Below the pieces are notes generated by a model that saw only the letters and a program-made list of their open reading frames with translations, did not search any database and was not told the origin of the DNA. DNA of 32,976 nucleotides, taken from the NCBI GenBank assembly GCA_028870705.1, contig JAGWPD010000095.1:1-32976 (forward strand), read 5' to 3'. This DNA comes from Gammaproteobacteria bacterium. GTDB lineage: Bacteria > Pseudomonadota > Gammaproteobacteria > Steroidobacterales > Steroidobacteraceae. Position 1 is the stretch's first letter. Each line of letters opens with the position of its first letter. The position numbers and the translations under genes were made by a program. Below, piece after piece: positions 4,278-32,976 of this stretch.

Positions 4278-4310
4278 GCCGCGTGCACGACTGGCGAGGC
4301 CATGACCCGC

Positions 4311-13739: not shown

Positions 13740-13835
13740 CGCCTGCATCCTGCGCAGTCTTGAGCACACCAAGAGTCAACCAGGTCTCCGGTGCGAAACG
13801 CCAGCGATGTGAACAGATGGCTCGGCCACAGCCAG

Positions 13836-14783: not shown

Positions 14784-14859
14784 GATCTGCAAAGGCCCTG
14801 AATCATTACCGGCGCAAGGTCAATTCATTAGACGCAATCGCAATCACCGATCAATCGGA

Positions 14860-15669: not shown

Positions 15670-15737
15670 GCTGCGGTGGCCCAGGTGTGGCACTGGCGGC
15701 GCGATCCGGCGATCGCGCCGCCAGCTGCGCACCGGTC

Positions 15738-18499: not shown

Positions 18500-19009
18500 T
18501 CAGTCCGGCAACGCGACCCAGACATCGCGGATCGCCTTGATGGCGAGTGCCTGCATGGAGGGTGCCTCGGCGCCTTGCCGGATCCGCCGCATCACATCGT
18601 CCGCGAGCGCCAACGCCTCGCCATTCACGGTGTTCTGCAGCAGCAGGTCCGAAAAATCCTTGACTTCGAGGCTGCCCATCGACCGATTTTCGAGCCGCTC
18701 GGATCGCGGCGGCAGCCAGTCGCAACTCGCTGCGGGCGTGTGCTGGCGGATGACCTCTCCTACATAGAACGTGGTGGCTATGACGGTCGTCAGCAGCGAG
18801 GCGACCGCCACTGCGCTGAATTGGGCATGTATTGCCAGCAGGTAATCATCCAGATGACGCAGACTGCCCACGCTAAGGTCGAGCTGCTTCCGGTCCAGTA
18901 CCTCGGGACAGGCGATGCGGTATTCGACGCGGTTGCCGACATTGCCGCGCAGCAGGCCCATGTAGAAGCTGGTCAATGCCGACAGATCGGGGTCAAGGTC
19001 GCGCTTCAT
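18500..19009 (-). CDS. Hypothetical protein, unknown family
   Basis: The product is 169 aa from ATG 19009 (MKRDLDPDLSALTSFYMGLL). An upstream in-frame start at 19081 would add 24 basic, poorly protein-like residues. The composition is ordinary for a folded soluble protein: LRGNVGNRVEYRIACPEVLD, SLRHLDDYLLAIHAQ, an Ala/Val/Thr-rich segment (SAVAVASLLTTVIATTFYVG) that could be a membrane helix or buried helix, and a C-terminal helical part (ALADDVMRRIRQGAEAP). I do not recognise the family. It diverges from the ECF sigma gene at 19153, with about 140 bp of shared upstream DNA. Confidence 0.65.
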   Translation of the reverse strand: MKRDLDPDLSALTSFYMGLLRGNVGNRVEYRIACPEVLDRKQLDLSVGSLRHLDDYLLAIHAQFSAVAVASLLTTVIATTFYVGEVIRQHTPAASCDWLPPRSERLENRSMGSLEVKDFSDLLLQNTVNGEALALADDVMRRIRQGAEAPSMQALAIKAIRDVWVALPD

Positions 19010-19122
19010 GAAGCGTACATCCACAAGGTTCCGGTTCGAAACGACGGCATGCGACCGTTTAGACGAACGCCGCCGGGCCAATCATTCGATGGATTCCCGG
19101 GTCCGAATACGTCTAATCTGGA

Positions 19123-19142
19123 GCCCTGCAGAGCTACAGGGC
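19123..19142 (+). promoter_or_regulatory. Hairpin overlapping the likely ribosome binding site of the ECF sigma gene
   Basis: GCCCTG (19123-19128) and CAGGGC (19137-19142) pair perfectly over 6 bp with an 8-base loop. The 3' arm contains the only purine-rich stretch (AGGGCGG) close to the GTG start at 19153. Folding would therefore mask it and could limit translation of the sigma factor. Confidence 0.3.
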
Positions 19143-19152
19143 GGTAGAGCGG

Positions 19153-19776
19153 GTGTACGAAGAAGACCAGGCGCTGGTCAGGCTGCTCTGCCAGGGCGAC
19201 GAGGCGGCGTATCGACGGTTTTTCGACGCCTATGCTCGGCGGTTGGCGGCGTTCGTCCAGCGCCGCATGGGCGGCGACCAGTTTGCGGTGGAGGATGTGG
19301 TCCAGAACGCGTTCATTCGTGCCGTCCGCGGCCTGCCCCAATATCGCGGCCAGGCCAGCCTGTATACGTGGCTGTGTGCCGTGGCGCGCAGCGAAATCGT
19401 GGACGAGCTGCGCCGGCGCGGCCGTAGTCCCAGGACCCTCAGTCTGGATGGGAGCACCGGAGTGGCCGCTTTGGTGGAAACTCTTCATCCAGTAGACGAT
19501 CCGCAAGGACCACGCCATGCCGAAAGCGCCGATTCCCTCGAGAGAGTCGCGCGGGTACTGGCGCAATTGCCGGCCCGATTTGCGGTTGCACTGGAAGGCA
19601 AATACGGTGACGAGTTGAGCGTGCGCGAGCTGAGCCGGCAACTTGGCCAGTCGGAAGCCGCGACGCAATCCCTGCTCGCCAGGGCGCGCGACGCGTTCAT
19701 CAAAGCATGGGAGGCTGACGGTCAGGTTCCCCCAGTCGAATCAGCCGGATTCGACGCTGGCCCGACGGACACGTGA
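19153..19776 (+). CDS. ECF RNA polymerase sigma factor, FecI-like position
   Basis: The product is 207 aa from a GTG at 19153. Region 2 covers about residues 23-92: FFDAYARRLAAFVQRRMGG, FAVEDVVQNAFIRAVRGLPQ with the D-V-V-Q-x-x-F core motif, and LYTWLCAVARSEIVDELRRR. Region 4 covers about 131-190: VARVLAQLPARFAVALEGKY, then LSVRELSRQLGQSEAATQSL for DNA binding. The tail is Pro/Asp-rich. The stop overlaps the GTG of the FecR gene by 4 bp, and a TonB receptor follows, so this is the cytoplasmic output of a cell-surface signalling operon. It probably controls the receptor gene itself. No ECF promoter could be assigned with confidence in the 140 bp upstream. Confidence 0.9.
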   Translation: MYEEDQALVRLLCQGDEAAYRRFFDAYARRLAAFVQRRMGGDQFAVEDVVQNAFIRAVRGLPQYRGQASLYTWLCAVARSEIVDELRRRGRSPRTLSLDGSTGVAALVETLHPVDDPQGPRHAESADSLERVARVLAQLPARFAVALEGKYGDELSVRELSRQLGQSEAATQSLLARARDAFIKAWEADGQVPPVESAGFDAGPTDT

Positions 19777-20765
19777 CCACCAAGGCGCCTGATCGTGGTG
19801 AATCGCGCGGCGAAATGCGCCTGCGCGAATATCTGCGCACGCGTCCGTTGGCCGAGGATTCCCTGGCTCGCATGCGCGATGCCGTGGCCGCGGAATGGCG
19901 TTCGTCCACGCAGCGCAGGCGGATGCAGCGACGGGTCGCACTGTGGGCAATGACGGGGGCAGCGGCTGCCATCAGCGCAGTCTGGATTGCCAGTCCCTGG
20001 TTCGCGCCGGCGCCCGGATTGCCGCTGGGCACCGTGTCTGGGGTCACCGCGGACAGCCTGTACGAACTTCGAGCATGGCGGCGGGATTCCGCATTGACCG
20101 CCGGTCAGCCAGTGCGGGCGGGTATGAAGCTGGAGGCGCGCCAGACGGCGGACATAAGCCTGCAGGGTGGTGGCACGCTGCTGCTGCGGGCAGGCACGCG
20201 TGCCCGCGGCGTGGACGGCCACACGCTCTATCTGGAATCCGGCACCGTCTACGTCGACATCGACCCCGCGTACGAGCGGGGTACGCTGGAAATTTTGACG
20301 CCGCGGGGCTCGGTCAGACATACCGCGACCGAATTCGAGGTGGCCGTAGGCACGAGCGGGGAGCGCGTACGGGTTCGCGAGGGCGCGGTGCTGGTTGGCA
20401 GCGCCAGGGCGACCCGGTCGCTGACCGCGGGCGACGAGTTGACTCAGGCGGCTGACGGTACGACTCAACTGCGGCGCATCGACAGCACGGACCCCGCATG
20501 GAAATGGGTCGAGGAAAGCAGCACGGTTCCGGATGCCGATGGCAAGCCAGTCGCCTTCCTGCTGGCCTGGGTGGCGAGGCGCTCGGGCCGCTCCGTACAA
20601 TATGCCGATGCGCACGCACGTGAGATGGCCGAGAAGACCATCCTGCATGGATCGGTTCGTGGCCTCGACGCCGCCGCCGCCTTGCGCACCGCCGTCTCCA
20701 CCACGACGCTGCGATGCGAGTTCCGCCCGAAAGTCCTGTGGGTCGCGGCGGCTGGAACCCGGTAG
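19773..20765 (+). CDS. FecR-type anti-sigma/transmembrane regulator with C-terminal STN-like domain
   Basis: The product is 330 aa, starting at GTG 19773 inside the stop of the sigma gene (GTGA overlap). Residues 1-54 form a cytoplasmic helical domain rich in Arg, presumably binding the sigma factor; it does not look like the usual DUF4880 domain. A membrane segment spans about 55-77. The periplasmic FecR domain covers about 105-225: AGMKLEARQTADISLQGGGT, YLESGTVYVDIDP, TPRGSVRHTATEFEV, RVREGAVLVG. The C-terminus (about 258-325) has the strand-helix pattern of an STN domain: VAFLLAWVARRSGRSVQYAD, LDAAAALRTAV, TTLRCEFRPKVLWVA. The following receptor has its own STN domain, so the two may contact each other in the periplasm. 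Confidence 0.87.
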   Translation: MTTKAPDRGESRGEMRLREYLRTRPLAEDSLARMRDAVAAEWRSSTQRRRMQRRVALWAMTGAAAAISAVWIASPWFAPAPGLPLGTVSGVTADSLYELRAWRRDSALTAGQPVRAGMKLEARQTADISLQGGGTLLLRAGTRARGVDGHTLYLESGTVYVDIDPAYERGTLEILTPRGSVRHTATEFEVAVGTSGERVRVREGAVLVGSARATRSLTAGDELTQAADGTTQLRRIDSTDPAWKWVEESSTVPDADGKPVAFLLAWVARRSGRSVQYADAHAREMAEKTILHGSVRGLDAAAALRTAVSTTTLRCEFRPKVLWVAAAGTR

Positions 20766-23052
20766 CTGGAAGTTTGCCGGCTGGATCGCCTGCTGGCTGC
20801 CGCTGCTCGCTCCGGGCCTGTCGCAGGCTGCCGCCAGTCAACCCGTCAGCGCGCTGATCGATGCCTTGCGGCGAGATGGCATCGAAATTCTGTACAGCTC
20901 CGAACAGGTACCCGATGACTGGTTGATCGCGACCGACGGCGAAAAGTCCAGCGGGCTGGAACGGCTGGCAACCGTGCTGGCGACGCGTCAGCTCCGTTTG
21001 AGCCTCATCGCGCCAAATCATTATGTGATCGAATGGATGGCCGCGCAGCCTGCGCATCCGACAGCAGCGCCGGCAAGCACGGATGAGCCGCGCGTGGACA
21101 GACTGGATGAGATCCTGGTCCGCGCGAGCCGCTACTCCCTGAATCAGGCCGCCGATCGCAATGCTGCGACCCTCAATGAGCGACGCATCGCCGATGCGCC
21201 GGGCACCGCCAATGATGTGCTGCAGGCGGTGCAACTGCTGCCGGGAATCGCCGCCATCGATTCCTCGCAACCCCACGTGCGCGGCTCCGCCCCCGATGAC
21301 GTGCTGATCCTCTACGATCATGTCCCGGTGTCCGATCCCTATCATTTGCGGGGATTCCCCAACATGGCGGGCATGTTTGACGCATTGACGGTGGACCGGA
21401 TAGACGTCTACACCGGCGCGTTCCCGGCACGCTACGGCGATCGCAGCGGGGGCGTGATTGACATTGCCGCGCGCCAGCCGGCACGCGGCCTGGAGAACAT
21501 ACTGCAGGTCAGCACCACGACCCAGCTGCTGGCCAGCTCCGGGCTCAGCGGGCGCGGCAGCTCGTGGAATCTGGCCATCCGGCGCCTGCATCCGAATGTC
21601 GCGGTCGAGACGGCAGCCGGTGAAGTGGACCAGCCTGCGCTGCTCGACGGGCTGGCGCGGGTCCAATGGCCGTGCGGCGAGGGCAACCGATGCACGGCGG
21701 GTGCACTGTTGATGCAGGATGAGATCAGCCTCAGTGGCGAGCTCAGTGCGGCCAGCGCCCATGCACTCTATCGCGACGAACATGCCTGGGTAGCGGTGGA
21801 GGCCGCGACCGAGGCGGCGTCGCTCCGCCGCGCAACGCTCAGCGTGGCGCATTCGGAGCGGCGGCGCGACGGGAGCCTTGCTTACCCAAGCGTCGTCACG
21901 GGCCGCGTCAGTGAGGACCGGGACATTCGCAGCGTGTCATATTCCGCTGAATGGCGCCTGCGGACCGCGGCCGATCAATCCTGGTCCATCGGCACCGACG
22001 GCGGATATGCGGACGGCGAGAGCCACTACGAAAGGACGGCCGCCTTCGCCCCCGCTGCCGCCGCAGCCTTTGGCAGATCGGCCTCGGCACAGCAGCTCGC
22101 TGACGCGGCGCCGATCGCCGTACGCACCGCCGCGTTTGGAGATTATCACGCGAGCATGGGGCCGCACGGCGACTGGGAAATCGGCGGCCGTCTCGACTGG
22201 CGGCGCTTCAGCATGAGCCCGTCGATTCTGAGCTGGAGTCCACGCCTGCATGCCCGCGTGCAGCTGTCGCCGCAGTGGCAGGCATTTGGCGGCTGGGGCG
22301 TGTACCGCCAGTCGCAGCGACCGGATGAATGGCGGCTCGAGGAGGGCCAGCAGACTGTGGATCCCCTGCAAACGGTGGAGCAGGCCATCGTGGGTCTGAA
22401 CGGCTCAGCATCCCCATCGCTGCAATGGCGGGTTGAGGCCTATGACAAGCGCTGGGACCATCCGGCGCCTTACCTGGAGAATCTGCTGGGCGGCCAGACG
22501 CTGCTGCCGGACCTGTCGCCCGATCGTGTGGCCATCCGGCCGACCAGCGCGCGCGCTTGGGGAGTCGAGTTCAGCGGTCACGCCGCATTGGGTCGCTGGA
22601 CGATTGACGGCAATATCACCCGCTCCAGTGCGCAGGATCTGGTCGGCGATGTCTGGACTGACCGAAGCTGGCAGCAAGGACTGGCGCTGGCCGCGGACAT
22701 CAGCTGGCGGATTCCGAGCTGGACGCTGGGCGCCACCATTCATTGGCACAGCGGCTGGCCGCGCACTCCCCTGCTCCCGGCAAGCGCAGCCGCCGGTGGC
22801 GCCGGGTGGGCGGTCGGGCCGCGCAACTCCGGGTCGTGGCCGCCGTTCTTCTCCGCAAACATCCGCGCCGCCTGGCACCGGGCGTGGGCGCGCACGGAAC
22901 TGGAGGTATTCGCGGAAGTGGGCAACGCGACCAATCACCCCAACCCCTGCTGCGTGGCGCTCATCGGTGGCGAGGCCACCCCGAGCGCAGACCTGCTGGG
23001 CTATTGGCGGCCGCGCACCCTGGGCGCCGGCTTTACCCTGCGGCGACGCTGA
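20647..23052 (+). CDS. TonB-dependent outer-membrane receptor with N-terminal STN signalling domain
   Basis: The frame is continuous to 23052. The start is uncertain: ATG 20647 (801 aa) overlaps FecR by about 120 bp, and the signal peptide (FAGWIACWLPLLAPGLSQA) begins only about 40 residues in. No better ATG/GTG/TTG lies closer. After the signal comes an STN domain (DNA about 20845-21040: SALIDALRRDGIEILYSSEQ, LATVLATRQLRLSLIAPNHY). A TonB-box-like LDEILVRA follows, then a plug (NDVLQAVQLLPGIAAID, PHVRGSAPDDVLILYDHVPV, RIDVYTGAFPARYGDRSGG) and a beta barrel. Barrel landmarks include EVFAEVGNATNHPNPCCVA near the C-terminus. The protein ends in LRRR instead of the usual terminal Phe/Trp. The substrate is unknown. 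It forms an operon with the sigma and FecR genes. Confidence 0.85.
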   Translation: MDRFVASTPPPPCAPPSPPRRCDASSARKSCGSRRLEPGSWKFAGWIACWLPLLAPGLSQAAASQPVSALIDALRRDGIEILYSSEQVPDDWLIATDGEKSSGLERLATVLATRQLRLSLIAPNHYVIEWMAAQPAHPTAAPASTDEPRVDRLDEILVRASRYSLNQAADRNAATLNERRIADAPGTANDVLQAVQLLPGIAAIDSSQPHVRGSAPDDVLILYDHVPVSDPYHLRGFPNMAGMFDALTVDRIDVYTGAFPARYGDRSGGVIDIAARQPARGLENILQVSTTTQLLASSGLSGRGSSWNLAIRRLHPNVAVETAAGEVDQPALLDGLARVQWPCGEGNRCTAGALLMQDEISLSGELSAASAHALYRDEHAWVAVEAATEAASLRRATLSVAHSERRRDGSLAYPSVVTGRVSEDRDIRSVSYSAEWRLRTAADQSWSIGTDGGYADGESHYERTAAFAPAAAAAFGRSASAQQLADAAPIAVRTAAFGDYHASMGPHGDWEIGGRLDWRRFSMSPSILSWSPRLHARVQLSPQWQAFGGWGVYRQSQRPDEWRLEEGQQTVDPLQTVEQAIVGLNGSASPSLQWRVEAYDKRWDHPAPYLENLLGGQTLLPDLSPDRVAIRPTSARAWGVEFSGHAALGRWTIDGNITRSSAQDLVGDVWTDRSWQQGLALAADISWRIPSWTLGATIHWHSGWPRTPLLPASAAAGGAGWAVGPRNSGSWPPFFSANIRAAWHRAWARTELEVFAEVGNATNHPNPCCVALIGGEATPSADLLGYWRPRTLGAGFTLRRR

Positions 23053-23121: not shown

Positions 23122-24786
23122 TCATTTTTCACTCGCAGATTCCAAAGGTACGGTCCAGTCGCCCTCCGCACTGACACGTGTGCCTGCACTGTCCGTAAAG
23201 TGGACGATATATCCCCCCTTCGAGGCGAAGCGCTGGCCCGGCGCCAACGCGAGCCGCGGATAGTAGCCCGTGACCAGCCGATGCTCGAGCATCTCCTCCA
23301 CCCGCTCGACCAGGTAGTCGCGCACGAATGTGTCGACCATATGATTGATCGTTTCCGAAACAATTGCGCACACTAAGTAGGTGTCGGTCTGCGCCTGTTC
23401 GGCCACGATCGGAATCTGCCGCATGCGAAACCAGCCCAATGGGTAATCCATCTGCACGCGCCGCCGGTCGGGCAGATTGAACGGGTAGCTCATGTGGGTC
23501 GCGGCGCGCCACGCTGCCGGGAGCGGAGCGTGCTCGAGCCCACCCATGCGGCCGGACATATATGCCGCCACATCATGTGGGGGTACCAGCGCGAGTGCCG
23601 CCAGGTCCGGCGCACGCAACCACAACACCAGCAGCTCACCGGGCCCCGTCTGGCCTACACGTTCACGCAGTTCGCTTTGCGTGGCCCTGGCGCCCAGGCT
23701 GCGATTGACGACCCGCAGCCCGGATTGGTGCAATTCCTTGTCCAGCGCGGCGGCTGCTTCGACCCCGACGTCGCCCGCGCGAAAAATCTGCACCACGCGT
23801 GACACCGGCACCGCCCGCTGGCGATCGCGAATCGCCTGAGCTAGCAGTTGCGCTTCCAGCAACACACCCTTGGAAAGATAAAGCGTATCGAAGTCGCTTT
23901 CGCGGTCGACTGGCAAGTCGACATTCGGGAACAGGCAGGGCAGCTCGGCAGCCTCGCAGAAATGATGCACCGGCGCCCAGCTGTGACCACCGACGCCCGA
24001 GATCACGGCGAACACCGGGGTTGCCGCAAGCTTCGCGCGCAGCTGTGCCTCCCAGGTCTCGGGCGCACCGGTGAGCTGCCAGACGTTCAGCGCCCAGCGC
24101 CGATTGACCTTGAACATCATGCGTCGCGAAGAATGCAGCCGCGGACTCTCGGCCCGGGTGTAATGGTTCTTGTCGTCGAAGAACTTCTCCAGCACCTCGA
24201 TCACGCCCTTCGCCACAGCCGGGTCGGCCTCCGGCGTGATGATGGTCGCGAAATGCAGCGCCGAGGGCGTTACACCGGGGACCTCGGCAGGCGCGAGCCG
24301 CCGCAGGTAGGCAATCAGCGAGCTCATCTGCGCGTCGTCGAGCTGGAAGTGCGGCATGAGGTAGCTGAGTGGCCGACCGTCGGCATCGATCCCCGTGCGT
24401 ATCGCGCGTGCCAGGGTCTCGTCGGTGTAGGGTTCGCGATCGGCCCGCATGCCCTCGACGTACGGCAGGTCCAGTTCATCGGCTGCCGCAGCGCGCGGAT
24501 GAAACAGGTATCTGCCGGCGATCGGGGGAATCGTCCGCCGGCCTTCCTTCATCCCCAGACCGCTGCGGCGATGACAGTTGACACACGCCGCAACCGCGCC
24601 CTCGACGCCCATGCCGGCCTCGCGCTCGGCTCGCAACGGTTCGCCGGAGGGCAACAGACCCAGGCGGTAAATCCTCTCGCCCGCCTCGTCGGCGTGCGCC
24701 CCGGCAGCGGTCATTGTGCCCCCGAGCATGACGAGCACGGCAAGCGGCGCGATGCGCGATCGCCACCCGAGCAACGCGGGAATCAT
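23122..24786 (-). CDS. Periplasmic c-type cytochrome fused to ABC-type substrate-binding-like domain
   Basis: The product is 554 aa with signal peptide about 1-32 (ending GAHA). Residues about 35-170 are a class I cytochrome c: heme motif CVNCH at 68-72, then RRSGLGMKEG, and a distal Met in PLSYLMPHFQLDD that probably ligates heme. From about residue 185 to the end there is a type 1 periplasmic-binding-protein-like fold. Its blocks include TPVFAVISGVGGHSWAPVHH, LPCLFPNVDLPVDRES, LLAQAIRDRQRAVPVSRVVQ and GPGELLVLWLRAPDLAAL; a C-terminal part carries ETINHMVDTFVRDYLVERVE. It is the last gene of the operon, and its ATG overlaps the SCO gene stop (ATGA). It could deliver or accept electrons while sensing a ligand; no transporter genes are adjacent. 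Confidence 0.85.
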   Translation of the reverse strand: MIPALLGWRSRIAPLAVLVMLGGTMTAAGAHADEAGERIYRLGLLPSGEPLRAEREAGMGVEGAVAACVNCHRRSGLGMKEGRRTIPPIAGRYLFHPRAAAADELDLPYVEGMRADREPYTDETLARAIRTGIDADGRPLSYLMPHFQLDDAQMSSLIAYLRRLAPAEVPGVTPSALHFATIITPEADPAVAKGVIEVLEKFFDDKNHYTRAESPRLHSSRRMMFKVNRRWALNVWQLTGAPETWEAQLRAKLAATPVFAVISGVGGHSWAPVHHFCEAAELPCLFPNVDLPVDRESDFDTLYLSKGVLLEAQLLAQAIRDRQRAVPVSRVVQIFRAGDVGVEAAAALDKELHQSGLRVVNRSLGARATQSELRERVGQTGPGELLVLWLRAPDLAALALVPPHDVAAYMSGRMGGLEHAPLPAAWRAATHMSYPFNLPDRRRVQMDYPLGWFRMRQIPIVAEQAQTDTYLVCAIVSETINHMVDTFVRDYLVERVEEMLEHRLVTGYYPRLALAPGQRFASKGGYIVHFTDSAGTRVSAEGDWTVPLESASEK

Positions 24787-25379
24787 TCTGTCGCGAGCAA
24801 CAGACGATACTGGCGCAGCAGTTCCGCCGGGCTCGCGAAACCGTCAATGCGCAACCACGGTTGGCTCGGGGCGATCCGCATCAGCGTCACGGGCGCGTGG
24901 CTCATCTTGTCGCCGCGATACACATCGAAGGCCCGCTGCGCGCTCTGGCTCTGCGCCAGTGTGCCGGTGTATTGATTCCAGCCGGCCCGGGCACCAAATT
25001 GCTTTGCGTACGCGCGTAAGCGCGCCGGCGAATCCTGCTCCGGATCGGTCGATATGGACATCAGGTGCACGCGTGCACTGTCAGTGCCCAGCTGGCGCTG
25101 GAAATCGGCGAACACCTGGCTCATCAGCGGACAGATAGAGCTGCAGCTGGTGAAGATGAAATTGAGCACCACCGGGCGCCCATCGTCCATTTCCCGCGCC
25201 AGCGACACGCGGCCTCCGTCCTGGCGCACCAGCGAAATGGCGGGCACCGCATAGTTGACGGTCGAAATGGTGGGCTGCGTCGCAGCCTGGGTCGCCAGCC
25301 CAAAGGTCATGAGCACCGTGACGTAGCAATAGGCGCGGCAGGTCATGCGCTGGCTGCCAGTGGTTATGGGCGAATTCAA
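24783..25379 (-). CDS. SCO1/SenC family protein
   Basis: The product is 198 aa if the TTG at 25379, which overlaps the upstream stop as TTGA, is used. ATG 25346 would give 187 aa and still keep the signal peptide (VTVLMTFGLATQAA). The thioredoxin-like fold carries the SCO metal/thiol motif with Cys79 and Cys83 (FTSCSSICPLMS). The STDPEQDSP segment follows, and a histidine (His161 in MSHAPVTLM) sits where SCO proteins have their third copper ligand. SCO proteins deliver copper to cytochrome oxidase CuA or act as periplasmic thiol-disulfide proteins. Here no oxidase genes are in view, and the neighbour is a cytochrome c fusion. Copper supply or redox maintenance for this operon is the likely role. 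Confidence 0.9.
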   Translation of the reverse strand: MNSPITTGSQRMTCRAYCYVTVLMTFGLATQAATQPTISTVNYAVPAISLVRQDGGRVSLAREMDDGRPVVLNFIFTSCSSICPLMSQVFADFQRQLGTDSARVHLMSISTDPEQDSPARLRAYAKQFGARAGWNQYTGTLAQSQSAQRAFDVYRGDKMSHAPVTLMRIAPSQPWLRIDGFASPAELLRQYRLLLATE

Positions 25380-26191
25380 GTCGGCTTGGCGAAGCGCTGC
25401 GCGTCGAGGTGCACATTCACGCCCACGTGCTCGAGCGCGATGCGCTCACTGCGCGCCACCCCCTGCACGCTGGTCTCGATCAAGTGCGCTATGACCAGCC
25501 CGTCGACCTTGCGGTAGTCGCGCAAGTACACCACCACACCATGCATCCGGCCGTCGAGCCGGCGCGGTGTGCCCTCCATTTTTACCTCGAGGAACGACTG
25601 CGCGTCGATCCAGTCGTGCAGCGTGCGCCCGTTCCTGAGCGTGAGTTTGAGCTTGTAAGCCGGATTCCCGTCGACAGCATCGATGCCCTCGAATTCGATC
25701 CGGGTGCCCTTGGCCGCGTAGTCGACCAGCAGGCCATCGAGGTCCGGCTGGCCGGCCGCGAGCTTGGCTTCCTCGGCGGTGTAAGGCTCGACTTCATGCC
25801 GGTTCAGGAACGGACGCAGCTTCCAGCCCTGGGTACCGTCGTACACCTGCACGGCGGTCTGGCCATTGAACTGCAGCTCCAGGCGCGACTTGCGGCCGCG
25901 CTGCATATCGAGCGTAAACGGCAACTTCACCTGGGCGGTCGGGTCCAGGTTGGGCGGTGGCGCCGGCATGCCCGGTGCTTTGATGTAGTGCTGGCTGTTG
26001 CCGCCGGCGTCCATCTTGCCCGCCCAGCTCATGGTCTGCAGCGCGTGCCAGGCGGACAGCCCACCGCGCGCGGCAATGTTGCGCTCGACGATCGCTTCCG
26101 CGCTGAGCTTGGGCGGCGGGGCCGTGGCGCCGCTTGCCAGCGCCGGCGCCACCGCCAGCACCATCCATACGAGTGGTCTTGCTCGGAACAT
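25376..26191 (-). CDS. LolA-like outer-membrane lipoprotein-sorting family protein
   Basis: The product is 271 aa with signal peptide about 1-22 (MFRARPLVWMVLAVAPALAS). After KLSAEAIVERNIAARGGLSA comes a chain of beta strands typical of the LolA/LolB half-barrel: MSWAGKMDA, VKLPFTLDMQRGRKSRLELQ, VQVYDGTQGWKLRP, FEGIDAVDGNPAYKLKLTL, LHDWIDAQSFLEVKMEG. The end reads VVVYLRDYRKVDGLVIAHLI then ETSVQGVARSERIALEHVGV. This matches 'outer membrane lipoprotein-sorting protein' homologues that are not LolA itself and whose cargo is unknown. It is the fourth visible gene of the operon, between an unknown exported protein (29 bp away) and SCO (4-bp overlap). It may carry a hydrophobic ligand or protein in the periplasm. 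Confidence 0.8.
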   Translation of the reverse strand: MFRARPLVWMVLAVAPALASGATAPPPKLSAEAIVERNIAARGGLSAWHALQTMSWAGKMDAGGNSQHYIKAPGMPAPPPNLDPTAQVKLPFTLDMQRGRKSRLELQFNGQTAVQVYDGTQGWKLRPFLNRHEVEPYTAEEAKLAAGQPDLDGLLVDYAAKGTRIEFEGIDAVDGNPAYKLKLTLRNGRTLHDWIDAQSFLEVKMEGTPRRLDGRMHGVVVYLRDYRKVDGLVIAHLIETSVQGVARSERIALEHVGVNVHLDAQRFAKPT

Positions 26192-26220
26192 ATGCGGGCT
26201 CCCGCACGCTCACGCGCGCT

Positions 26221-26694
26221 CTAATTCGCCACAATCAGGCCGTCAACGCGGAACGAGCCGATGACCACGCTGACGCGATCGCCGGCCGTGACCACGCCAC
26301 CTTTGTTCGAGAACAGCACCCAGTAGGTCTTGCCCGCTTCGGCGGCGCCGGATTGGCGCAGCGGCCCTACCTTCTCCATGGTGGGCACGGACAGTACCGC
26401 GCCGGCGCGCTCGTCGAGCAGGCTGGGATTGGACACCTTGTCGAGCAACGGCTTGGCCAGGCGTGCGTCAACGATGCGGTAGCTGAAGCGCACCAGCTGG
26501 CCAGACTCTGCGAGCTGCGCTCTGAGCTGATCCACGCCCCAGGTGGCGCTGTAGTAGCTGCGCGCACTGGCCGGCATTTCCCCGGCCGCGTAACGCGAGG
26601 CGTGCCTTAGGCGCGTGGCCGGCGCGGAGGCCGCCATCCCGACCGAGGCCAGGCAGAGCCCAAGCACCAGCCAAATGCCCGCCGGCCTGCGCAT
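26221..26694 (-). CDS. Exported protein of unknown function
   Basis: The product is 157 aa from ATG 26694 (a GTG two codons upstream, at 26700, is possible). It has a signal peptide about 1-24 (WLVLGLCLASVGMAASA). The mature protein has a helical N-terminal third (RYAAGEMPASARSYYSATWG) and a beta-rich core. The core includes SGQLVRFSYRIVDARLAKPL, PSLLDERAGAVLSVPTMEKV, GKTYWVLFSNKGGVVTAGDR and VSVVIGSFRVDGLIV. I recognise this pattern as recurring in uncharacterised proteins but know no function for it. It begins 7 bp after the stop of the LTxxQ protein gene, so it is clearly in the same operon. Confidence 0.75.
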   Translation of the reverse strand: MRRPAGIWLVLGLCLASVGMAASAPATRLRHASRYAAGEMPASARSYYSATWGVDQLRAQLAESGQLVRFSYRIVDARLAKPLLDKVSNPSLLDERAGAVLSVPTMEKVGPLRQSGAAEAGKTYWVLFSNKGGVVTAGDRVSVVIGSFRVDGLIVAN

Positions 26695-26701
26695 CGGCAC
26701 C

Positions 26702-27205
26702 CTACCCCGCCTGCTGGTGACTGGCCGCGTCCAGCCAGTCCTGGACGCTGGGCGCGGTTGGGTCGTGCGCCGGACGTTGTGGCCGCGGCGGATTGAATTG
26801 CTTGCGCTGTTCGGGGGTCAACAACGCGCGCATGCGATCGGCCGCGGCGACGCCGATGGCACGCGTGGCGTGGATGCGATTCGCGGCATCGATCCCCGGA
26901 TCACGCCACACCTGCCGCACCTGCTCGCGCTGCCACGCCAGCAGCGCCCGCAGTTGCGCTTGCTGACGGGCATCGAGGTGCAGCTGCCGCGCGTACAGCT
27001 CGACGCGCCTTTCGAGCCCGTCGCCGTGATCGCGCGAAATTGGCGCCTGCGCTGCAGCCGACACCACGGGGCCCGTGGCGGCCGCAGCGTCCATGCATAC
27101 GCCAGCCATGGTCATCAGCGCCCCGAGCGCAAGCGCGCACTGCCCGCGGTTGGTGCCGCGGGCAGTGCCGATCTTCGTGGCCGCCTGCAGCCTACGGTGT
27201 CGCAT
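26702..27205 (-). CDS. Spy/CpxP-like LTxxQ-motif periplasmic protein
   Basis: The product is 167 aa. The ATG at 27205 lies inside the end of the giant upstream gene (14-bp overlap in another frame). The signal peptide is atypical, with 21 basic/polar residues before the hydrophobic core (CALALGALMTMAGVCMDAAA). The mature part is almost all helix: GLERRVELYARQLHLDARQQ, AQLRALLAWQREQVRQVWRD, RIHATRAIGVAAADRMRALL. It ends in the family motif LTPEQ (129-133) followed by RKQF and a Pro-rich tail. Spy and CpxP are periplasmic helical chaperone or metal-stress proteins with LTxxQ repeats. This one is probably a periplasmic chaperone for the operon's large exported protein or part of a metal response. 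Confidence 0.75.
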   Translation of the reverse strand: MRHRRLQAATKIGTARGTNRGQCALALGALMTMAGVCMDAAAATGPVVSAAAQAPISRDHGDGLERRVELYARQLHLDARQQAQLRALLAWQREQVRQVWRDPGIDAANRIHATRAIGVAAADRMRALLTPEQRKQFNPPRPQRPAHDPTAPSVQDWLDAASHQQAG

Positions 27206-30200
27206 ACCCGGTGAGATTGGCGGTTTGCGGGCTGCCGGCTCCGTTGTCGGTGAATACCGCCGTGCCGCTGCGGTTGGTGCCGCGGGCCGAAAGCACGTTG
27301 GTGAATCTCACGGTCGCCGTGCAGGTCTGTCCGGGCGCCACCGCGGCGCCGATACAGGTGTTCGCGTCGAGACTGAAGAACCAGGAGAGAAACCCACTAC
27401 CCGCACCGCTGTTCACTGCCACATTGGTAATGGCGATCTGGGCACCGCCCGCGCCGGCCGTGTTGGTGAACGTCACCGTACCGGTACCCGAACAAGCGGC
27501 CGTATTGCCGGACAGGCAAGAGGGAACGGGGCTCGCCAGCGTGATGGTCAAGGGTGTGACCGACACGGTCGCGCGAGAGGCGACGCCGGCTCCGCTCAGC
27601 ACAACCGGCACGGGAGTCACGGTCGCACCGGGCGCGGCGACCGTCACAGACCCGTTGTAGGACTGCGCCGCGGTCGGTGCAAACCGGATCTTGATGGTGC
27701 AGGCGGCGCCGATGGCGAGGTTGGCGCCGCAGTTCGGTTGCCCTGCCGGGAAGGTACCGGTCGTGACCCGGGTGAATGGTGCCCCGATACCGGTGTAGGT
27801 CAGGTTCGCCAAGGCCGTGTTGCCGGTATTGGTCACGGTCAGGTTCTTCACGGCGCTGGTCGTGCCGGTGGCCCAATTACCGAAATCCAGCGGGCTCGGG
27901 CTCACCGCGGCGCTCAGCCGCTGCACGAACACGGTTTCGACGGCACCGATATCGGCCGGATTAACCGCGTTGTGCGGCCGCAGGCTGCCAAAGTAGTCGG
28001 TATCCGGCGCGGGCTCGTTGGCCCCAGTGTTGACGGCGATCGAAGCCGGATCGGTTGAGTAGGCGCCGAGGGTCGGCCCGTCCAGTGCCCCGCCGATCAG
28101 GCTCTGACCCGCGCTCGAGAACAATGCGAGCGGTCCGTAGCTCAGGTTGATCCAGTTGCTGCCCTCGTCGACCGTGGCGGCCGGCTGAATGTTGTTGAAC
28201 ACGAACACCGGGCTTAACCCCGTAGTCTCGGAGCGACCCGCGGGTACGTTGTAGCCCATGCCGCCGTTCTCCGGAGGCACGCGTGAGCCGTTGCAGTATT
28301 GACTGATCAGCGGTGAAGTGGCCGGAACCTGGTTACCCGTGCCATTCACGTAACCGACCGGATTGGCGGTGAGGATCGAGTTGTTTACCACCAGCGTCGG
28401 ATTGACCGAAGGCGCACCGAGAATCGGCGTGAAGCCAATCACCGCGTGGTTGGTTGGCGAAGTGTCGCCGCGCACACCGACGTCCCAATAGTTCGCGCCG
28501 CTCATGCAATCTCCAGTCGCGTGCTGGTTCAGGGCGGGGAACAAGCCCACCAGATTCTGCTGTGACTGGTTGCCGCTGCCCTTGAACGGATCTTTGACTT
28601 CCGCACCGGTCGCGTCCGCGTAGGCCACGTGGAACGCTCTGTTCTGCCAGAACAAGTCGTTCGCGACGGCGGGCATCGAGAGCGTGCGGCAGCGGCCGTT
28701 GGTGCGTGAGAGCTGTGAATCGGCGGCATTGCCGTAGTTGTAACCCGCCGGGCAAACCACCAGCAGCGGCAGGCTCGCGATCAGGTTGGGTGTATTGACC
28801 GTGGTCACCAATCCCGCCGGCTGCGGAATATGTGGTGCGTCCGTCGCCAGGCACCCGGGCGCCTGCGGCATGCCGGGGTCCGGCTGCAGGCAACCCGGCG
28901 CGGGTGAGGCGGCCATGCCGGCGCCCAGGGCCTTGAACAGCACGCCGGCCGAAGCGGTCGTATCGTTCGATGCGATGGTGTTGTTGATCAGCCGCACCTT
29001 CAGTGCGTCTTCGAGCGACACGCCCGCGCCGTCCCAGCCCGCCACGTTGTTGGCGATGATGTTATTGGTCACGGTCACGTCGTGCCAGCGGTTTGGATTG
29101 GTCGGGAAGGCGCTCACTTCGGTGCCGTTGACCTGCTGCAGACGCAATCCGCCGCCGCTGCCGCTCTCGGCACTGTTGCCGAGGATCAGGTTGGCATCGA
29201 TCCGCAACCCGGAGCCGGTGCCGTCGCCGATACCCGGCACGCAGTCGTTGTCCGTGAAGCTGCCGCATTCATTGCCATCGGCCAGCACGCGATCCGAGTT
29301 GGCGCCCACGATCGCCAGGCCACCACCGTTGGTGGGCAAGGTCGGGTTGACGCTCTGGTTGAACAGGATCCAGTTGTTGTGGATCCGGCCATTGACGCTA
29401 AGGCCCAGGTGCTCCATGCCGCCGCCGTCGCCAGTGCTCAGGTTGCCGGCAATCCAGTTGTGATCTATCTCATAGTTGTCGGCGCCGGCGCTCACGGTGA
29501 GGCCGCCGCCTCCGGACGGAGTGCCGGAGAACAGCGCGTCGCCGAGCGATGCATTGTTGTAGATATCGTTGTGGTGCACGTGCACGCCGACATTCAGCTG
29601 GAACGGGATCGCGCCATTGACCGGCGTGCCCGACAGTGGCGGGCACAGCGGCGCCGGCGTCGGCACGCCCGGACCACAGATCGTGCCGTCGTTGATGTAA
29701 GCCGGTGGCGTCTCGCCATTGCCCAGGTTGATGCCACCCGAGAGCGTGCCGTGATTCGCCGACAGGCGGTTGTTGGCCACATCAAGATTGTGGTTCCAAC
29801 CGTGGATGAATATGCCGCCACCGCCTTGCGAACTGTTGATGATGCTCAGGCCGTCGATGCGCGACGGGTTGCAATGGAAGTTGCTGGTGCCGTAGTCGTA
29901 CATGGTCCGCGCGGTGGTGGATGAGTTGCAGTCGGTGTTGCGGCCATCCAGATAGCGGCTGCCATCGGGGAAAGCGCCCGCCACGCCGGGCGTCGCCTGG
30001 CCCCACAGGTCGGTACTGCCGTTGGGAACGCGCACACCGCGCCCCAGCACCGTCACACCGGCACCTTCGTAGGCGCCCATCAGCGTCGGCTCCTGCAATA
30101 CCTGCGCCAGGTTGCCGTTGCTCGAGGCATCCCAGCCCACGAAGCCCTCGAAGGGAATGCGGTCGACGCGCAGATACATGTCGTCCGGGCAGACAAAGCC

Positions 30201-32976
30201 GGTCTTGGCGTCAAACTGCGCATTGTTGAGATTCGGCACGCCATCGATGGTCAGGCCGAAGAGGCAATTCACCTGCCGCCGCCAGGCATCCATCTTGCCC
30301 GCGGGGTGCGCGTCGGCATTGATGGTTACGGCACCGGAGCCGACGCCTTGCAGTCGCACCGGTTTCCACATCAGGAGGTTTTCCTTGTAGGTGCCGGGGC
30401 CGACGATGATCAGATCGCCAGGCTTGGCGGCATCGATCGCATGCTGAATCGCATGGCCGGTGAGATCCTGGCCGGCCACGTAGATCGGCTTGCTGCCGCC
30501 CGCCGTGACCGTAATCGCATCGATAGAGCGCTTGCCAGTGTCAGCCGTGATGACCAGCTGGCCGCACAAGGCGGCACCGGCCGCGACACCTCGCTGCGCC
30601 GGCGCGCAGGCCGGCAGCGCGGGCGGTACGGTGACCGTGATGGCCGTGTCGCTCCATGCGCTCACCGGCGCATTTAGGCCACCGATGGTGACCGTGCCCG
30701 TGCCCTGCGCAGCGCCAAACCCATAGTGGCGCGTGATGGTCTTGAGGTTGAAAGGCGCGGTTGCGGCGTTGGGTCCGGAGAAGGCCGGATTTTGCACTAC
30801 CTTGTCGCCCAGCGCCGTGATGATGAGCGAACCGCTCGCCCCCAGCGACAGGCTCGCGCTCGCCGCGGCACCGCTTCCGCCGCCTCCCGCGAAGCTGACG
30901 AGCGGAGCGGCGTCGTAACCCGCGCCGCCGCTTTGCAGCGCTACGGCCCTGACCGTAAGGCGCGCCGTGGCGGTGGCCGGCCCGGTGCTGAAAGAGATGC
31001 CGGGCGCTGCCGTATAGCCGCTGCCGCGGTTGCTCATGTCGATCCCGGTGACCCGACGGTTCTGATTGGTGGGGTTGTTGCTCGACATCTGCGCGCTGCC
31101 GGTGGCGCGCACGCAGGTGGTGGTGTTGATGACGCAGGGCGGCGCGTCGAAAATGACCGTGGGAGTTGCCACGTTGCGATAGGAGCCGTTGGGGCTGTTG
31201 GCGACGCTCACCGAGCCCACGCCCATCAGCGCGAGAGCGCCGGCACCGGCTCCGCTCGCGCCGGCCGGCGGCGTGAAGTCGACGGTCGGCACGGACGTGT
31301 AGTTGGCGCCGCCGTTGGTCAGCTGCACCGCGCTCACCGGACCAGTCGCGCTGACCCACGGACCCTGCACGGCATTGGGATCGGCGTTGACGACCTGGCG
31401 GATTGCCGGCGTGCCGTCCGGATATTCCGCATCAGGCAGGTTGTAGCCTTCCGCAAAGGCCTGCGTTGGCACCACTGGTGTATCCATGTAGGTGGTGAAG
31501 CCGGGCATGAACGGCTGTTCGTAGCAGAAGTTGCTGTAGGCCGGGTTGTAGTTCGGATCCGTGACGGTCTGCCCGGGGTGGGCGGCGTCGGCCACCGGAC
31601 CCGGATCGTTCATGCAGGCGATCATCATCGTCGGGATGTACCCGGTCGGATTGGGCGGATTGACCGCGTAGCTCGAGTAGTTGAGGCCGTTGTACAGACC
31701 CCATTGGTCGGAGTACACGCGCGCAATCTCCTTGCCGGTGTAGTCGCGGATGCCGACCGGCAGATTGGGCGGACCGAACTTCTCGCCAAATTGCGGCGAG
31801 AACGGATCGAACTCCGAGGCGAAGTCGTTGGTGATCGTGCCGGTGAAGTGCCCGGCGATGTGCGCCGAGGTGAACACGTAAAACTTCACCAGCGCCGTGG
31901 CCTGGTTCTCGAGGATCACGGCCTTGCGATCGCACAGGTGGCGCGTGGCGCCGGCAAACGGCGCGTTCTGGCCGGCCGTCGGGAACAGGCTGTTGTAATC
32001 GGGCACGATGCGCGCGGCACCGACGCAAGGCCAGAACGACTCGATGCTGCCTGTGTCGCCCTCGTGGCGCGGGGTGGCGCCGAGGTTGGTGGTGGCATTG
32101 AGGCCGTTGTTCTGGTTGTAGTAGGCATTCACCGCGGCCTGGTCGGGCATGATGAAGACATTGCCGAAGCCCGCCGGAAATTGCTGTGAGACGGGCGCAA
32201 TGTAGGTATCGCCGAGGAAAATGTTCTTGTCTTCCTCCTTCACGAGCTCGAAGCCCGGCGGCACGATGACCTCCACCACGTACTTGCCGGCCGGTAGCAT
32301 CGGATTGCCGTCATCCGGGTTGGCGCCACAAATCGAGCAGTTGGTACCCGCAGGCCGGCCACTGACCGCATCGCGCCCTGTGACGCTCGGGAACCTGTAC
32401 ATGCCGTCGTACGGTGCCGGCTGAATCTGGTTCAGCATCGACCACCCGTCGTAGCACTTGAACTGCGCATTGTTCGGAAGCGCGGTGCGGTTCGGATCGA
32501 GCCATTGCGTGCTGTCCTTCAAGGTCGCAAAGAACGGGCTCGCCGGGTCCTGGCCCGGGCAATTCATGTTCGGAACGCCGTCCGAGCGGAAGCCCTGCGC
32601 AAAATCATCCCAGCTGCTGGTGGTGGTCCGATCGACCAGTTTCAGCCCGCTGGTGCCGTCCGGCGCGGTGACTTCCTGGTACAGATTGACCTTGACGCGC
32701 GGTACGCCCGGCTCCCAGCTCAGCTGCAGGAGCAAGGCCGGATCATCGAACGGGCGCGTCGAGGCATAGATCACGTGGCCCTTGATGCCGCCGTTCTCGT
32801 TGGGCAGGAAGGGCTTCATCGCAAATTCCGCGTAGTCGTTCAGACCCAGCAGTCCCTGCCAGCCTTCGGTGGTGGTCCCCGGCGGATCGATGCGGGCGGT
32901 GGAAAGGCCGGTCACGCCGGCACCGGAAGTGCCGTTGTAATAGGGACCATTGGCAATCGAGAAGCCGGCGCAATCG
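27192..32976 (-). CDS. Giant exported beta-helix surface protein (N-terminus beyond window edge)
   Basis: The frame is open from the right edge (1927 codons visible; the GTG at 32915 is internal, since DCAGFSIANG...YYNG continues upstream). Order: an N-terminal region with SdrD/Cna-B-like beta domains (KYVVEVIVPPGFELVKEEDK, GNVFIMPDQAAV, YTGKEIARVYSDQWGLYNGL); three glycine-rich repeats of the form GGxGYxxxPxVxF...GAxAxA (about 30850-31345); an IPT/TIG-like domain (YGFGAAQGTGTVTIGGLNAP); and a long right-handed beta-helix. The helix opens with IQHAIDAAKPGDLIIVGPGT and continues with repeated N-x-I/L-x-x-N turns such as HHNDIYNN, DHNWIAGN and NNIIANNVAGWDGAG. Two choice-of-anchor-D-type domains with CGANLAIGAACTIKIRFAP close it. 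The beta-helix suggests carbohydrate or surface binding. It is the first visible gene of the operon. Confidence 0.85.
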   Translation of the reverse strand, partial: DCAGFSIANGPYYNGTSGAGVTGLSTARIDPPGTTTEGWQGLLGLNDYAEFAMKPFLPNENGGIKGHVIYASTRPFDDPALLLQLSWEPGVPRVKVNLYQEVTAPDGTSGLKLVDRTTTSSWDDFAQGFRSDGVPNMNCPGQDPASPFFATLKDSTQWLDPNRTALPNNAQFKCYDGWSMLNQIQPAPYDGMYRFPSVTGRDAVSGRPAGTNCSICGANPDDGNPMLPAGKYVVEVIVPPGFELVKEEDKNIFLGDTYIAPVSQQFPAGFGNVFIMPDQAAVNAYYNQNNGLNATTNLGATPRHEGDTGSIESFWPCVGAARIVPDYNSLFPTAGQNAPFAGATRHLCDRKAVILENQATALVKFYVFTSAHIAGHFTGTITNDFASEFDPFSPQFGEKFGPPNLPVGIRDYTGKEIARVYSDQWGLYNGLNYSSYAVNPPNPTGYIPTMMIACMNDPGPVADAAHPGQTVTDPNYNPAYSNFCYEQPFMPGFTTYMDTPVVPTQAFAEGYNLPDAEYPDGTPAIRQVVNADPNAVQGPWVSATGPVSAVQLTNGGANYTSVPTVDFTPPAGASGAGAGALALMGVGSVSVANSPNGSYRNVATPTVIFDAPPCVINTTTCVRATGSAQMSSNNPTNQNRRVTGIDMSNRGSGYTAAPGISFSTGPATATARLTVRAVALQSGGAGYDAAPLVSFAGGGGSGAAASASLSLGASGSLIITALGDKVVQNPAFSGPNAATAPFNLKTITRHYGFGAAQGTGTVTIGGLNAPVSAWSDTAITVTVPPALPACAPAQRGVAAGAALCGQLVITADTGKRSIDAITVTAGGSKPIYVAGQDLTGHAIQHAIDAAKPGDLIIVGPGTYKENLLMWKPVRLQGVGSGAVTINADAHPAGKMDAWRRQVNCLFGLTIDGVPNLNNAQFDAKTGFVCPDDMYLRVDRIPFEGFVGWDASSNGNLAQVLQEPTLMGAYEGAGVTVLGRGVRVPNGSTDLWGQATPGVAGAFPDGSRYLDGRNTDCNSSTTARTMYDYGTSNFHCNPSRIDGLSIINSSQGGGGIFIHGWNHNLDVANNRLSANHGTLSGGINLGNGETPPAYINDGTICGPGVPTPAPLCPPLSGTPVNGAIPFQLNVGVHVHHNDIYNNASLGDALFSGTPSGGGGLTVSAGADNYEIDHNWIAGNLSTGDGGGMEHLGLSVNGRIHNNWILFNQSVNPTLPTNGGGLAIVGANSDRVLADGNECGSFTDNDCVPGIGDGTGSGLRIDANLILGNSAESGSGGGLRLQQVNGTEVSAFPTNPNRWHDVTVTNNIIANNVAGWDGAGVSLEDALKVRLINNTIASNDTTASAGVLFKALGAGMAASPAPGCLQPDPGMPQAPGCLATDAPHIPQPAGLVTTVNTPNLIASLPLLVVCPAGYNYGNAADSQLSRTNGRCRTLSMPAVANDLFWQNRAFHVAYADATGAEVKDPFKGSGNQSQQNLVGLFPALNQHATGDCMSGANYWDVGVRGDTSPTNHAVIGFTPILGAPSVNPTLVVNNSILTANPVGYVNGTGNQVPATSPLISQYCNGSRVPPENGGMGYNVPAGRSETTGLSPVFVFNNIQPAATVDEGSNWINLSYGPLALFSSAGQSLIGGALDGPTLGAYSTDPASIAVNTGANEPAPDTDYFGSLRPHNAVNPADIGAVETVFVQRLSAAVSPSPLDFGNWATGTTSAVKNLTVTNTGNTALANLTYTGIGAPFTRVTTGTFPAGQPNCGANLAIGAACTIKIRFAPTAAQSYNGSVTVAAPGATVTPVPVVLSGAGVASRATVSVTPLTITLASPVPSCLSGNTAACSGTGTVTFTNTAGAGGAQIAITNVAVNSGAGSGFLSWFFSLDANTCIGAAVAPGQTCTATVRFTNVLSARGTNRSGTAVFTDNGAGSPQTANLTGYATP

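What the first reader, a model, noticed from the sequence alone, without database searches (positions are those of the whole stretch)
23122..32976. Compact operon of exported redox and scaffold proteins, possibly an undescribed extracellular system
Six consecutive minus-strand genes overlap or nearly touch (14-bp overlap, 7 bp, 29 bp, 4-bp overlap, 4-bp overlap). All appear to be exported; the giant protein's signal peptide would lie outside the window. The set is a giant beta-helix protein, an LTxxQ protein, an unknown exported protein, a LolA-like carrier, a SCO protein and a cytochrome c-PBP fusion. Known family roles (copper delivery, heme electron transfer, chaperoning, surface scaffold) point to one envelope redox process, perhaps oxidation of a metal or an extracellular substrate. 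I know no named system with this composition. The missing upstream genes could include a multicopper oxidase.
Basis: partly seen in the sequence, partly recalled or inferred. Interest (0 to 1): 0.8.

Follow-up and report, generated by a model that had tools for sequence, protein, structure and literature searches.

The report
Half of a split copper-oxidase operon
The six genes are the downstream half of a secreted copper-enzyme gene cluster that many soil and iron-oxidising bacteria carry and that has been reported before, and sequence comparison suggests that its oxidase is built from three separate protein chains sharing one active site.

Summary
The six minus-strand genes are real: MofC-like cytochrome c/binding-protein fusion, SCO, LolA-like, small exported protein "X", LTxxQ protein, and the 3' part of a giant beta-helix protein cut by the contig end. 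The window is one whole contig. Paralogous contigs and relatives supply the missing part: two multicopper-oxidase (MCO) genes plus the giant's cupredoxin N-terminus; contig C126 is the likely partner, by inference.

The cluster is widespread: giant...LolA...MofC in one run in 69 of 80 MofC-seeded loci; MCO2 in 31 of 31 genomes searched. It is published: Sideroxydans lithotrophicus ES-1 Slit_1812-1818, raised on magnetite (PMC12016527; also PMC5566968). So this is a new member of a known kind, function unproven.

What I add: MCO1, MCO2 and the giant's N-terminus are related two-cupredoxin chains with reciprocal ligand loss. MCO1 keeps only domain-1 copper motifs, MCO2 only domain-2 motifs, the giant neither. 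This predicts a heterotrimeric oxidase with one composite trinuclear centre, between homotrimeric two-domain and six-domain MCOs. My searches found no print of it. The substrate is inferred: Fe(II)/Mn(II) most likely, phenolics possible.

The parts
23122..24786 (-). MofC-like protein: signal-peptide-like N-terminus, one CxxCH cytochrome c domain (CVNCH at residue 68), weak periplasmic-binding (ANF_receptor) domain
   Evidence: Cytochrom_C 23.8 bits (cut-off 21.3), ANF_receptor 18.2 bits (cut-off 25.4); CxxCH in 8 of 8 aligned members; domain make-up as described for MofC-like proteins in PMC5566968
24783..25379 (-). SCO1/SenC copper chaperone (TTG start chosen mechanically; ATG 11 codons inside possible)
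   Evidence: PF02630 E 8.3e-21; SCO found in 54 of 80 related loci
25376..26191 (-). LolA-like exported protein
   Evidence: PF17131 LolA_like in 20 of 21 aligned members (best 4.5e-8), not in the window protein itself
26221..26700 (-). X: small exported protein with a C-terminal Ig-like beta-sandwich domain, a marker of this cluster
   Evidence: AlphaFold mean pLDDT 86.8; no PDB match at E<=0.001; in the 274-genome class sample X occurs in 6 genomes (window's own included), all 6 with MCO1 and MofC
26702..27205 (-). LTxxQ (Spy/CpxP-like) periplasmic protein
   Evidence: PF07813 22.3 bits (just under cut-off), weak Spy match far below cut-off; an LTXXQ relative directly follows the giant in 6 of 80 loci, one of them G016's
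27192..32975 (-). C-terminal 1927 residues of the giant MCO3/beta-helix protein, cut by the contig end; N-terminus with signal peptide and two copper-less cupredoxin domains probably on contig C126
   Evidence: 44% and 58% identical to the C118 giant over two stretches; by alignment about 365-395 residues missing between C126 and the window; join inferred, no overlap

Best explanation
SHOWN: the genes match, in order and sequence, the 3' half of a cluster whose full order in relatives is MCO1 - MCO2 - giant (MCO3 + beta-helix) - (LTxxQ) - X - LolA-like(s) - SCO/MofC, in part of the loci with type II secretion genes (secretin, pseudopilins) or an FKBP nearby. MCO1, MCO2 and the giant's N-terminus are homologous two-cupredoxin chains; MCO1 keeps the domain-1 copper motifs only, MCO2 the domain-2 motifs only, MCO3 neither.

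INFERRED: the three chains assemble like a two-domain-MCO trimer, with a single type 1 copper in MCO1 and a single trinuclear centre made by MCO1 domain 1 and MCO2 domain 2; MCO3 is a structural third subunit that ties the enzyme to a beta-helix/Ig surface module. SCO loads copper; LTxxQ, FKBP, LolA-like and X help fold or carry the subunits; MofC gives or takes electrons during maturation or turnover; the type II system exports the complex. The enzyme oxidises a substrate outside the cell with O2. I think Fe(II)/Mn(II), perhaps mineral-bound, is the most likely substrate (about 0.45); phenolic or humic substrates are next.
For: Intact loci: G016 has MCO1-MCO2-giant(3298 aa)-LTxxQ-X-LolA-LolA2-SCO-MofC with a secretin/pseudopilin block beside it; MCO1-MCO2-giant was read in 14 distinct loci. 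Own genome: C118 and C274 share an exact 141-base end overlap and give one complete copy; C126 ends inside a giant N-terminus.

Co-occurrence without seeding, 273 genomes of the class sample apart from the window's own: MCO1 6, X 5, MofC 8, five shared by all; Fisher p 5e-10 (MCO1 x X), 3e-8 (MCO1 x MofC), genomes treated as independent.

Reciprocal motif loss: MCO1 16 of 16, and 5 of 5 type II MCO1s, have HxxHxHG and HCH...H..M, none HPxHxH or WHSH; MCO2 21 of 21 have HPxHxH and WHSH, none HCH. Domain 1 of both matched to two-domain MCOs 3g5w and 2zwn. Paralogy: hhalign MCO1-MCO2 97.5% E 5.8e-12, MCO2-MCO3 99.9% E 1.5e-31.

Beta-helix module fused to MCO3 (C118, G016), fused to MCO1 (C228), or separate (G365:C27, G264).

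Two-domain MCO trimers form the trinuclear centre from domain 1 of one protomer and domain 2 of the next (PMC13151041, passages). The matching ES-1 cluster is raised on magnetite (PMC12016527).
Against: No structure of the assembly: the MCO2 model failed (mean pLDDT 42.9) and multimer prediction was not on offer. Domain-2 alignments to 3g5w are weak alone: MCO2 i-E 0.22 for HxxHxHG and not significant for HSH, MCO1 not significant (i-E 600); the MCO1-MCO2 hhalign alignment stops before WHSH. So domain-2 loss in MCO1 rests mainly on motif counts. MCO3's match to solved MCOs is short (best E 3.7e-4). The C126-window join is inferred: no overlap found. A classical MCO needs no cytochrome. Substrate evidence is only co-expression in another species. 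The 80 loci are the best 80 of 188, found by MofC, with several from one contig or genome, and cannot show how often MofC lacks the cluster; in the class sample 3 of 9 MofC-positive genomes (G155, G160, G283) lack MCO1 and 1 of 7 MCO1-positive ones (G136) lacks MofC and X.
Confidence: 0.66

Rival explanations
1. Laccase-like reading: the secreted enzyme oxidises phenolics, humics or plant polymers, not metals; the adhesin-like giant binds organic matter.
For: Many carriers are soil Burkholderiales (soil habit from general knowledge); the best structural relatives include a two-domain laccase; Keffer et al. mention adhesin- and polysaccharide-lyase-like domains in the ES-1 giant; the polysaccharide-lyase fn3_3 domain matches the C228 giant (just below cut-off) and the G365 giant.
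Against: The ES-1 cluster is raised on magnetite in a lithotroph; carriers include Sideroxydans, Gallionella and Anaeromyxobacter records. No substrate was tested in the passages read.
Confidence: 0.3
2. MofA/OmpB/MnxG membership: the cluster is a split version of the MofA/MnxG manganese oxidase itself.
For: Shares MofC-like, SCO and (in some loci) FKBP genes with mofA/ompB clusters as described in PMC5566968; G155 has an MnxG-family protein near SCO and a distant MofC relative.
Against: The MnxG-family chain from G155 gives no blastp match below E 0.03 to MCO1, MCO2 or the giants, while matching solved MnxG 9bxa at 2.4e-85; He et al. [quoted passage not shown] MofA and OmpB themselves were not compared.
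Confidence: 0.08
3. Two independent, homomeric MCOs: MCO1 and MCO2 each form their own trimers, and the giant is a separate adhesin.
For: Two-domain MCOs are trimers of one chain; Keffer et al. describe both proteins as having canonical or typical MCO motifs.
Against: Neither chain alone carries the motifs of both domains, so a homotrimer would lack half of the trinuclear ligands.
Confidence: 0.12
4. Copper handling: the cluster is an envelope copper oxidase/sequestration system like CueO/CopA.
For: SCO, copper ligands; NCBIfam matches of MCO1/MCO2 to copper_res_A and of MCO2 to CueO, all far below cut-off.
Against: A 3000-residue exported protein is out of proportion for such a task, and CueO/CopA are single-chain enzymes (general knowledge). 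Copper-efflux genes were not searched for.
Confidence: 0.05

Closest known systems
Sideroxydans lithotrophicus ES-1 cluster Slit_1812-1818 (PMC12016527; three tandem MCOs in PMC5566968)
   Same: Same parts and order by locus tag: cytochrome, SCO1/SenC, small hypotheticals, giant cupredoxin protein without MCO motif, two MCO-motif cupredoxins
   Different: The window copy has an LTxxQ gene, and its genome holds at least three such loci. ES-1 itself was not fetched; Sideroxydans MAG loci L075/L148 (one contig) and L121 stand in for it
mofABC / ompB clusters (Leptothrix, Rubrivivax A210, Geobacter)
   Same: As described in print: MofC-like protein with cytochrome c plus periplasmic-binding domain, FKBP-type MofB, SCO copper chaperone, extracellular MCO; Rubrivivax mof operon also has a copper metallochaperone and an exported unknown (passages)
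   Different: One long MofA chain there; an MnxG-family chain (G155) shows no blastp similarity below E 0.03 to MCO1-3
Two-domain MCOs (3g5w, 2zwn)
   Same: Two cupredoxin domains per chain; type 1 and HCH motif in domain 1, HxxHxH in domain 2
   Different: There all ligands are on one chain in a homotrimer; here the motifs are divided between two different chains, with a third that has none
Six-domain MCOs (ceruloplasmin, MnxG)
   Same: Would have six cupredoxin domains in all with one trinuclear centre left of a hypothetical three (PMC3600357, passages)
   Different: One chain there, three here

Membership tests
Slit_1812-1818-type cluster | Two MCO-motif cupredoxin genes next to a giant cupredoxin gene without MCO motif | tested here: met
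   Not in the window (contig end) but in own contigs C274/C118 and C126 and in relatives, 14 loci read; for the window's own copy only by the inferred join to C126
Slit_1812-1818-type cluster | SCO1/SenC, cytochrome and small exported proteins in the same run | tested here: met
   Window; 69 of 80 MofC-seeded loci with giant...LolA...MofC
Slit_1812-1818-type cluster | Direct sequence comparison with ES-1 proteins | not tested
   ES-1 record not fetched; Sideroxydans MAG L075 MofC 55% identical
mofABC / MnxG / OmpB | Single-chain MofA/MnxG-family oxidase | tested here: not met
   MnxG-family chain of G155 has no blastp match under E 0.03 to MCO1-3; NCBIfam MnxG model does not match MCO1, MCO2 or the window giant at E<=0.01
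mofABC / MnxG / OmpB | MofC: cytochrome c plus periplasmic-binding domain | tested here: inconclusive
   cytochrome above cut-off, binding domain below it; no MofC sequence from Leptothrix compared
mofABC / MnxG / OmpB | MofB FKBP in the cluster | tested here: inconclusive
   Absent from the six window genes; FKBP (PF00254 E 3e-20) beside the C118 copy on the other strand and in 7 of 80 loci
Two-domain MCO | Two cupredoxin domains per chain | tested here: inconclusive
   Domain 1 clear (best E 4e-14 for MCO2, 8e-15 for MCO1), domain 2 weak or not significant; AlphaFold model of MCO2 unusable
Two-domain MCO | All type 1 and trinuclear motifs on one chain | tested here: not met
   21 of 21 MCO1 (16 + 5 type II) lack HPxHxH and WHSH; 21 of 21 MCO2 lack HCH
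Two-domain MCO | Trimeric assembly | not testable with these tools
   no multimer prediction

The most novel reading that the evidence does not exclude
The cluster encodes a heterotrimeric multicopper oxidase: three diverged two-cupredoxin chains in which complementary loss of copper ligands has left one composite trinuclear centre between MCO1 and MCO2, while the third, copper-free chain became the anchor for a movable beta-helix module. It would be the unfused intermediate between homotrimeric two-domain MCOs and six-domain proteins such as ceruloplasmin and MnxG, living today in many soil and iron-oxidising bacteria.
Probability: 0.58. Interest if true: 0.75.

Novelty: new member of a known kind. 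Interest (0 to 1): 0.5.

Why it matters
The same kind of cluster sits in a lithotroph that raises it on magnetite and in many common soil genera, yet its enzyme is unstudied as far as the passages I read say. The reciprocal-ligand reading gives a sharp, cheap test (co-expression against single expression) and would supply a living intermediate for the evolution of six-domain copper oxidases. MofC relatives also lie with or near at least three kinds of MCO, which makes MofC a general, unexplained partner of extracellular copper oxidases.

Tried and rejected
Rejected: MCO1-MCO2 natural fusion in Anaeromyxobacter (a 1255-residue open frame): the stretch before MCO2 in that frame matches no MCO1; my script drops overlapping frames, so MCO1 was not called in that stretch at all. 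Rejected: C228's left end as the direct neighbour of the window; no end overlap, and C228 proteins are only 28-40% identical to locus A. C210 fits better as C228's continuation, also without overlap. Rejected: MofA/MnxG membership.

Led nowhere: MCO2 structure; PDB search with X, no match at E<=0.001; paper search for beta-helix + SCO1 + MCO + manganese + Burkholderia, 0 papers. G283 has MofC and two SCO-like genes but no MCO recognised in 17 kb; its 616-aa frame has no Pfam hit. A class-wide search at E<=1e-40 gave MCO1 matches in open frames of 420-691 residues, apart from the own C228 giant; none looked like a single-chain MofA, but the threshold is strict.

MCO2 identities there are the best hit of each genome, which may be another copy than the fetched locus. 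The motif counts left out MCO1s whose best match is the C228 giant; one search adds 5, same result. Two odds were lowered by 0.02 because domain-2 alignments are weaker than first worded.

Not done: comparison with ES-1 or Leptothrix proteins themselves; a tree; naming the MAG's family; signal-peptide prediction.

Full report
OBSERVATION. The six minus-strand genes are present at the stated coordinates. The window is the whole of contig C32 of a 3.0-Mb, 343-contig assembly, 93% complete, so the giant gene is cut by the contig end. Pfam supports SCO1/SenC and cytochrome c; the binding-protein, LTxxQ and giant matches are below curated cut-offs in the window proteins. LolA-like is supported by 20 of 21 aligned relatives, not by the window protein itself. 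NCBIfam gives the giant a choice-of-anchor D domain above cut-off and a weak NosD match.

THE MISSING HALF. The same genome holds related loci. C118 and C274 share an exact 141-base end overlap and together read secretin, pseudopilins, SCO, MCO1 (650 aa), MCO2 (553 aa), a giant of about 3080 aa, X, LolA-like, MofC, then FKBP (other strand), a second LolA-like and LTxxQ. The window proteins are 44% and 58% identical to the C118 giant over two stretches, 52% to its X, 51% to its LolA, 53% to its MofC. C126 (6397 bases) reads MCO1, MCO2 and 941 residues of a giant N-terminus before it ends. By alignment to the C118 and G016 giants, about 365-395 residues separate it from the window's first residue. 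No end overlap exists, so the join is inferred. In 31 loci, MCO2 identity to C126 and giant identity to the window rank alike (Spearman 0.84); this shows shared history, not linkage.

CONSERVATION. Among 98 genomes of the relatives draw (own included), 8 have the window giant's conserved region, in 4 of 45 genera. G016 keeps the order MCO1-MCO2-giant-LTxxQ-X-LolA-LolA2-SCO-MofC with a convergent secretin/pseudopilin block. A MofC profile found 188 related stretches in named genomes; the best 80 were kept, some of them from the same contig or genome. In these, within the fetched stretch, giant occurs in 75, LolA-like in 71, X in 58, SCO in 54, pseudopilin-like in 29, GspD in 9, FKBP in 7, LTxxQ in 7 of 80; 69 of 80 have giant...LolA...MofC in one run, 6 of 80 with LTxxQ directly after the giant. 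Flanks of at most 10 kb mostly do not reach MCO1/MCO2, so I asked for 32 of the 80 loci's genomes: 31 were held and 31 of 31 matched MCO2, weakest best hit 2.8e-116 (place in the genome not checked for each). The order MCO1-MCO2-giant was read directly in 14 distinct loci.

UNSEEDED TEST. In one class-wide draw of 274 genomes, MCO1 (E<=1e-40) occurs in 7, MofC (E<=1e-20) in 9, X (E<=1e-8) in 6. All 6 X genomes have both others. Without the window's own genome: MCO1 x X p 5e-10, MCO1 x MofC p 3e-8, treating genomes as independent. G136 has MCO1 alone. G155, G160 and G283 have MofC without MCO1: G155 has an incomplete MnxG-family chain (NCBIfam MnxG 2e-242, 807 bits against a cut-off of 3100; PDB 9bxa 2.4e-85) near SCO and a distant MofC relative, G160 an MCO of 849 aa with FKBP and MofC, G283 no MCO recognised. 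MofC relatives thus lie with or near at least three kinds of MCO.

THE SPLIT OXIDASE. MCO1 and MCO2 each match two-domain MCOs best among solved structures. Profile alignments to 3g5w show MCO1 domain 1 keeping HxxHxHG and HCH....EH..M, and MCO2 domain 1 having lost both; MCO2 domain 2 lines up its HxxHxHG and HSH with those of 3g5w, at weak scores (i-E 0.22 and not significant), and MCO1's domain-2 alignment is not significant. Motif counts carry the domain-2 claim: 16 of 16 MCO1 and 5 of 5 type II MCO1 have the HxxHxHG/HCH set and none has HPxHxH or WHSH; 21 of 21 MCO2 have HPxHxH and WHSH and none has HCH (17 of 21 also fit HxxHxHG; where I inspected them this is the same domain-2 motif). 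The giant's N-terminus has neither set and is clearly related to MCO2 (99.9%, E 1.5e-31), as MCO1 is (97.5%, E 5.8e-12). In two-domain MCO trimers the trinuclear centre lies between domain 1 of one protomer and domain 2 of the next (PMC13151041, passages), and six-domain proteins are thought to have lost two of three such centres (PMC3600357, passages). The economical reading is a heterotrimer with one composite centre. That is inference; the MCO2 model failed and no complex could be predicted.

A MOVABLE SCAFFOLD. The beta-helix/SdrD-like module is fused behind MCO3 in the C118, G016 and G365:C37 type, in front of MCO1 in own C228, and is a separate gene before MCO1-MCO2-MCO3-X in G365:C27 and G264. 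Fusion to different subunits in different lineages argues that all belong to one complex.

ACCESSORIES. X folds confidently as an Ig-like sandwich without a significant PDB relative. The secretin on own contig C210 carries a cohesin domain, and the gene after X there and in G264 is a subtilase with a MopE-type putative metal-binding motif (in G264 just under cut-off). SCO loading copper, LTxxQ/FKBP/LolA/X assisting folding or transit, and the type II genes exporting the complex follow from family knowledge; none was tested.

KNOWN OR NEW. He et al. [quoted passage not shown] lithotrophicus ES-1. Keffer et al. 2025 (passages and Discussion part 1 read) identify Slit_1812-1818, find it raised on late magnetite against Fe(II)-citrate, note that the giant Slit_1816 lacks MCO motifs, and list Paraburkholderia, Ralstonia, Anaeromyxobacter and Steroidobacteraceae as other carriers. 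A search for the Slit_1816-1818 tags found only that paper. So the finding is a new member of a reported kind. Searches (two-domain, six-domain, heterotrimer, trinuclear, cupredoxin, MCO) listed nothing about a heterotrimeric split MCO; 10 of 50 and 10 of 26 matching papers were listed, most seen only as listings, and the library holds open-licence papers only.

VERDICT. Ordinary as a discovery of a cluster, useful as a mechanism: the guess of a missing MCO was right, and the copper-ligand pattern makes a clear, testable prediction.

Noticed in passing
window 19153-23052 (+): ECF sigma factor, FecR and a TonB receptor (STN-like N-terminus by eye, no Pfam hit) form a Fec-type surface signalling set convergent to the cluster, ending 69 bases from MofC.
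   Followed up: partly
window 7072-12737 (+): Ser/Thr protein kinase with TPRs followed by a 1031-aa protein with DUF7948, SBBP and Ig-like domains.
   Followed up: no
L205 (G160:C178) and L204 (G155:C3): MofC relatives sit with an 849-aa MCO plus FKBP, and near an MnxG-family chain plus SCO: MofC goes with at least three kinds of MCO.
   Followed up: partly
L124 and L131, within 10 kb of MofC: Very large multihaem cytochrome-like open frames (39 and 42 CxxCH motifs; L124 also one with 21) near the cluster in 2 of 80 loci.
   Followed up: no
L199 (G000:C210) 2736-4490 and L202 15417-17129: Subtilase with a MopE-type putative metal-binding motif directly after X, perhaps a processing protease.
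   Followed up: partly
L199 (G000:C210) 4500-6884: Type II/III secretin carrying a C-terminal cohesin domain.
   Followed up: no
L058+L059 (G005:C155) 9254-10818 and 10821-22182: MCO2 and giant genes are each split into two overlapping frames, decayed or misassembled.
   Followed up: no
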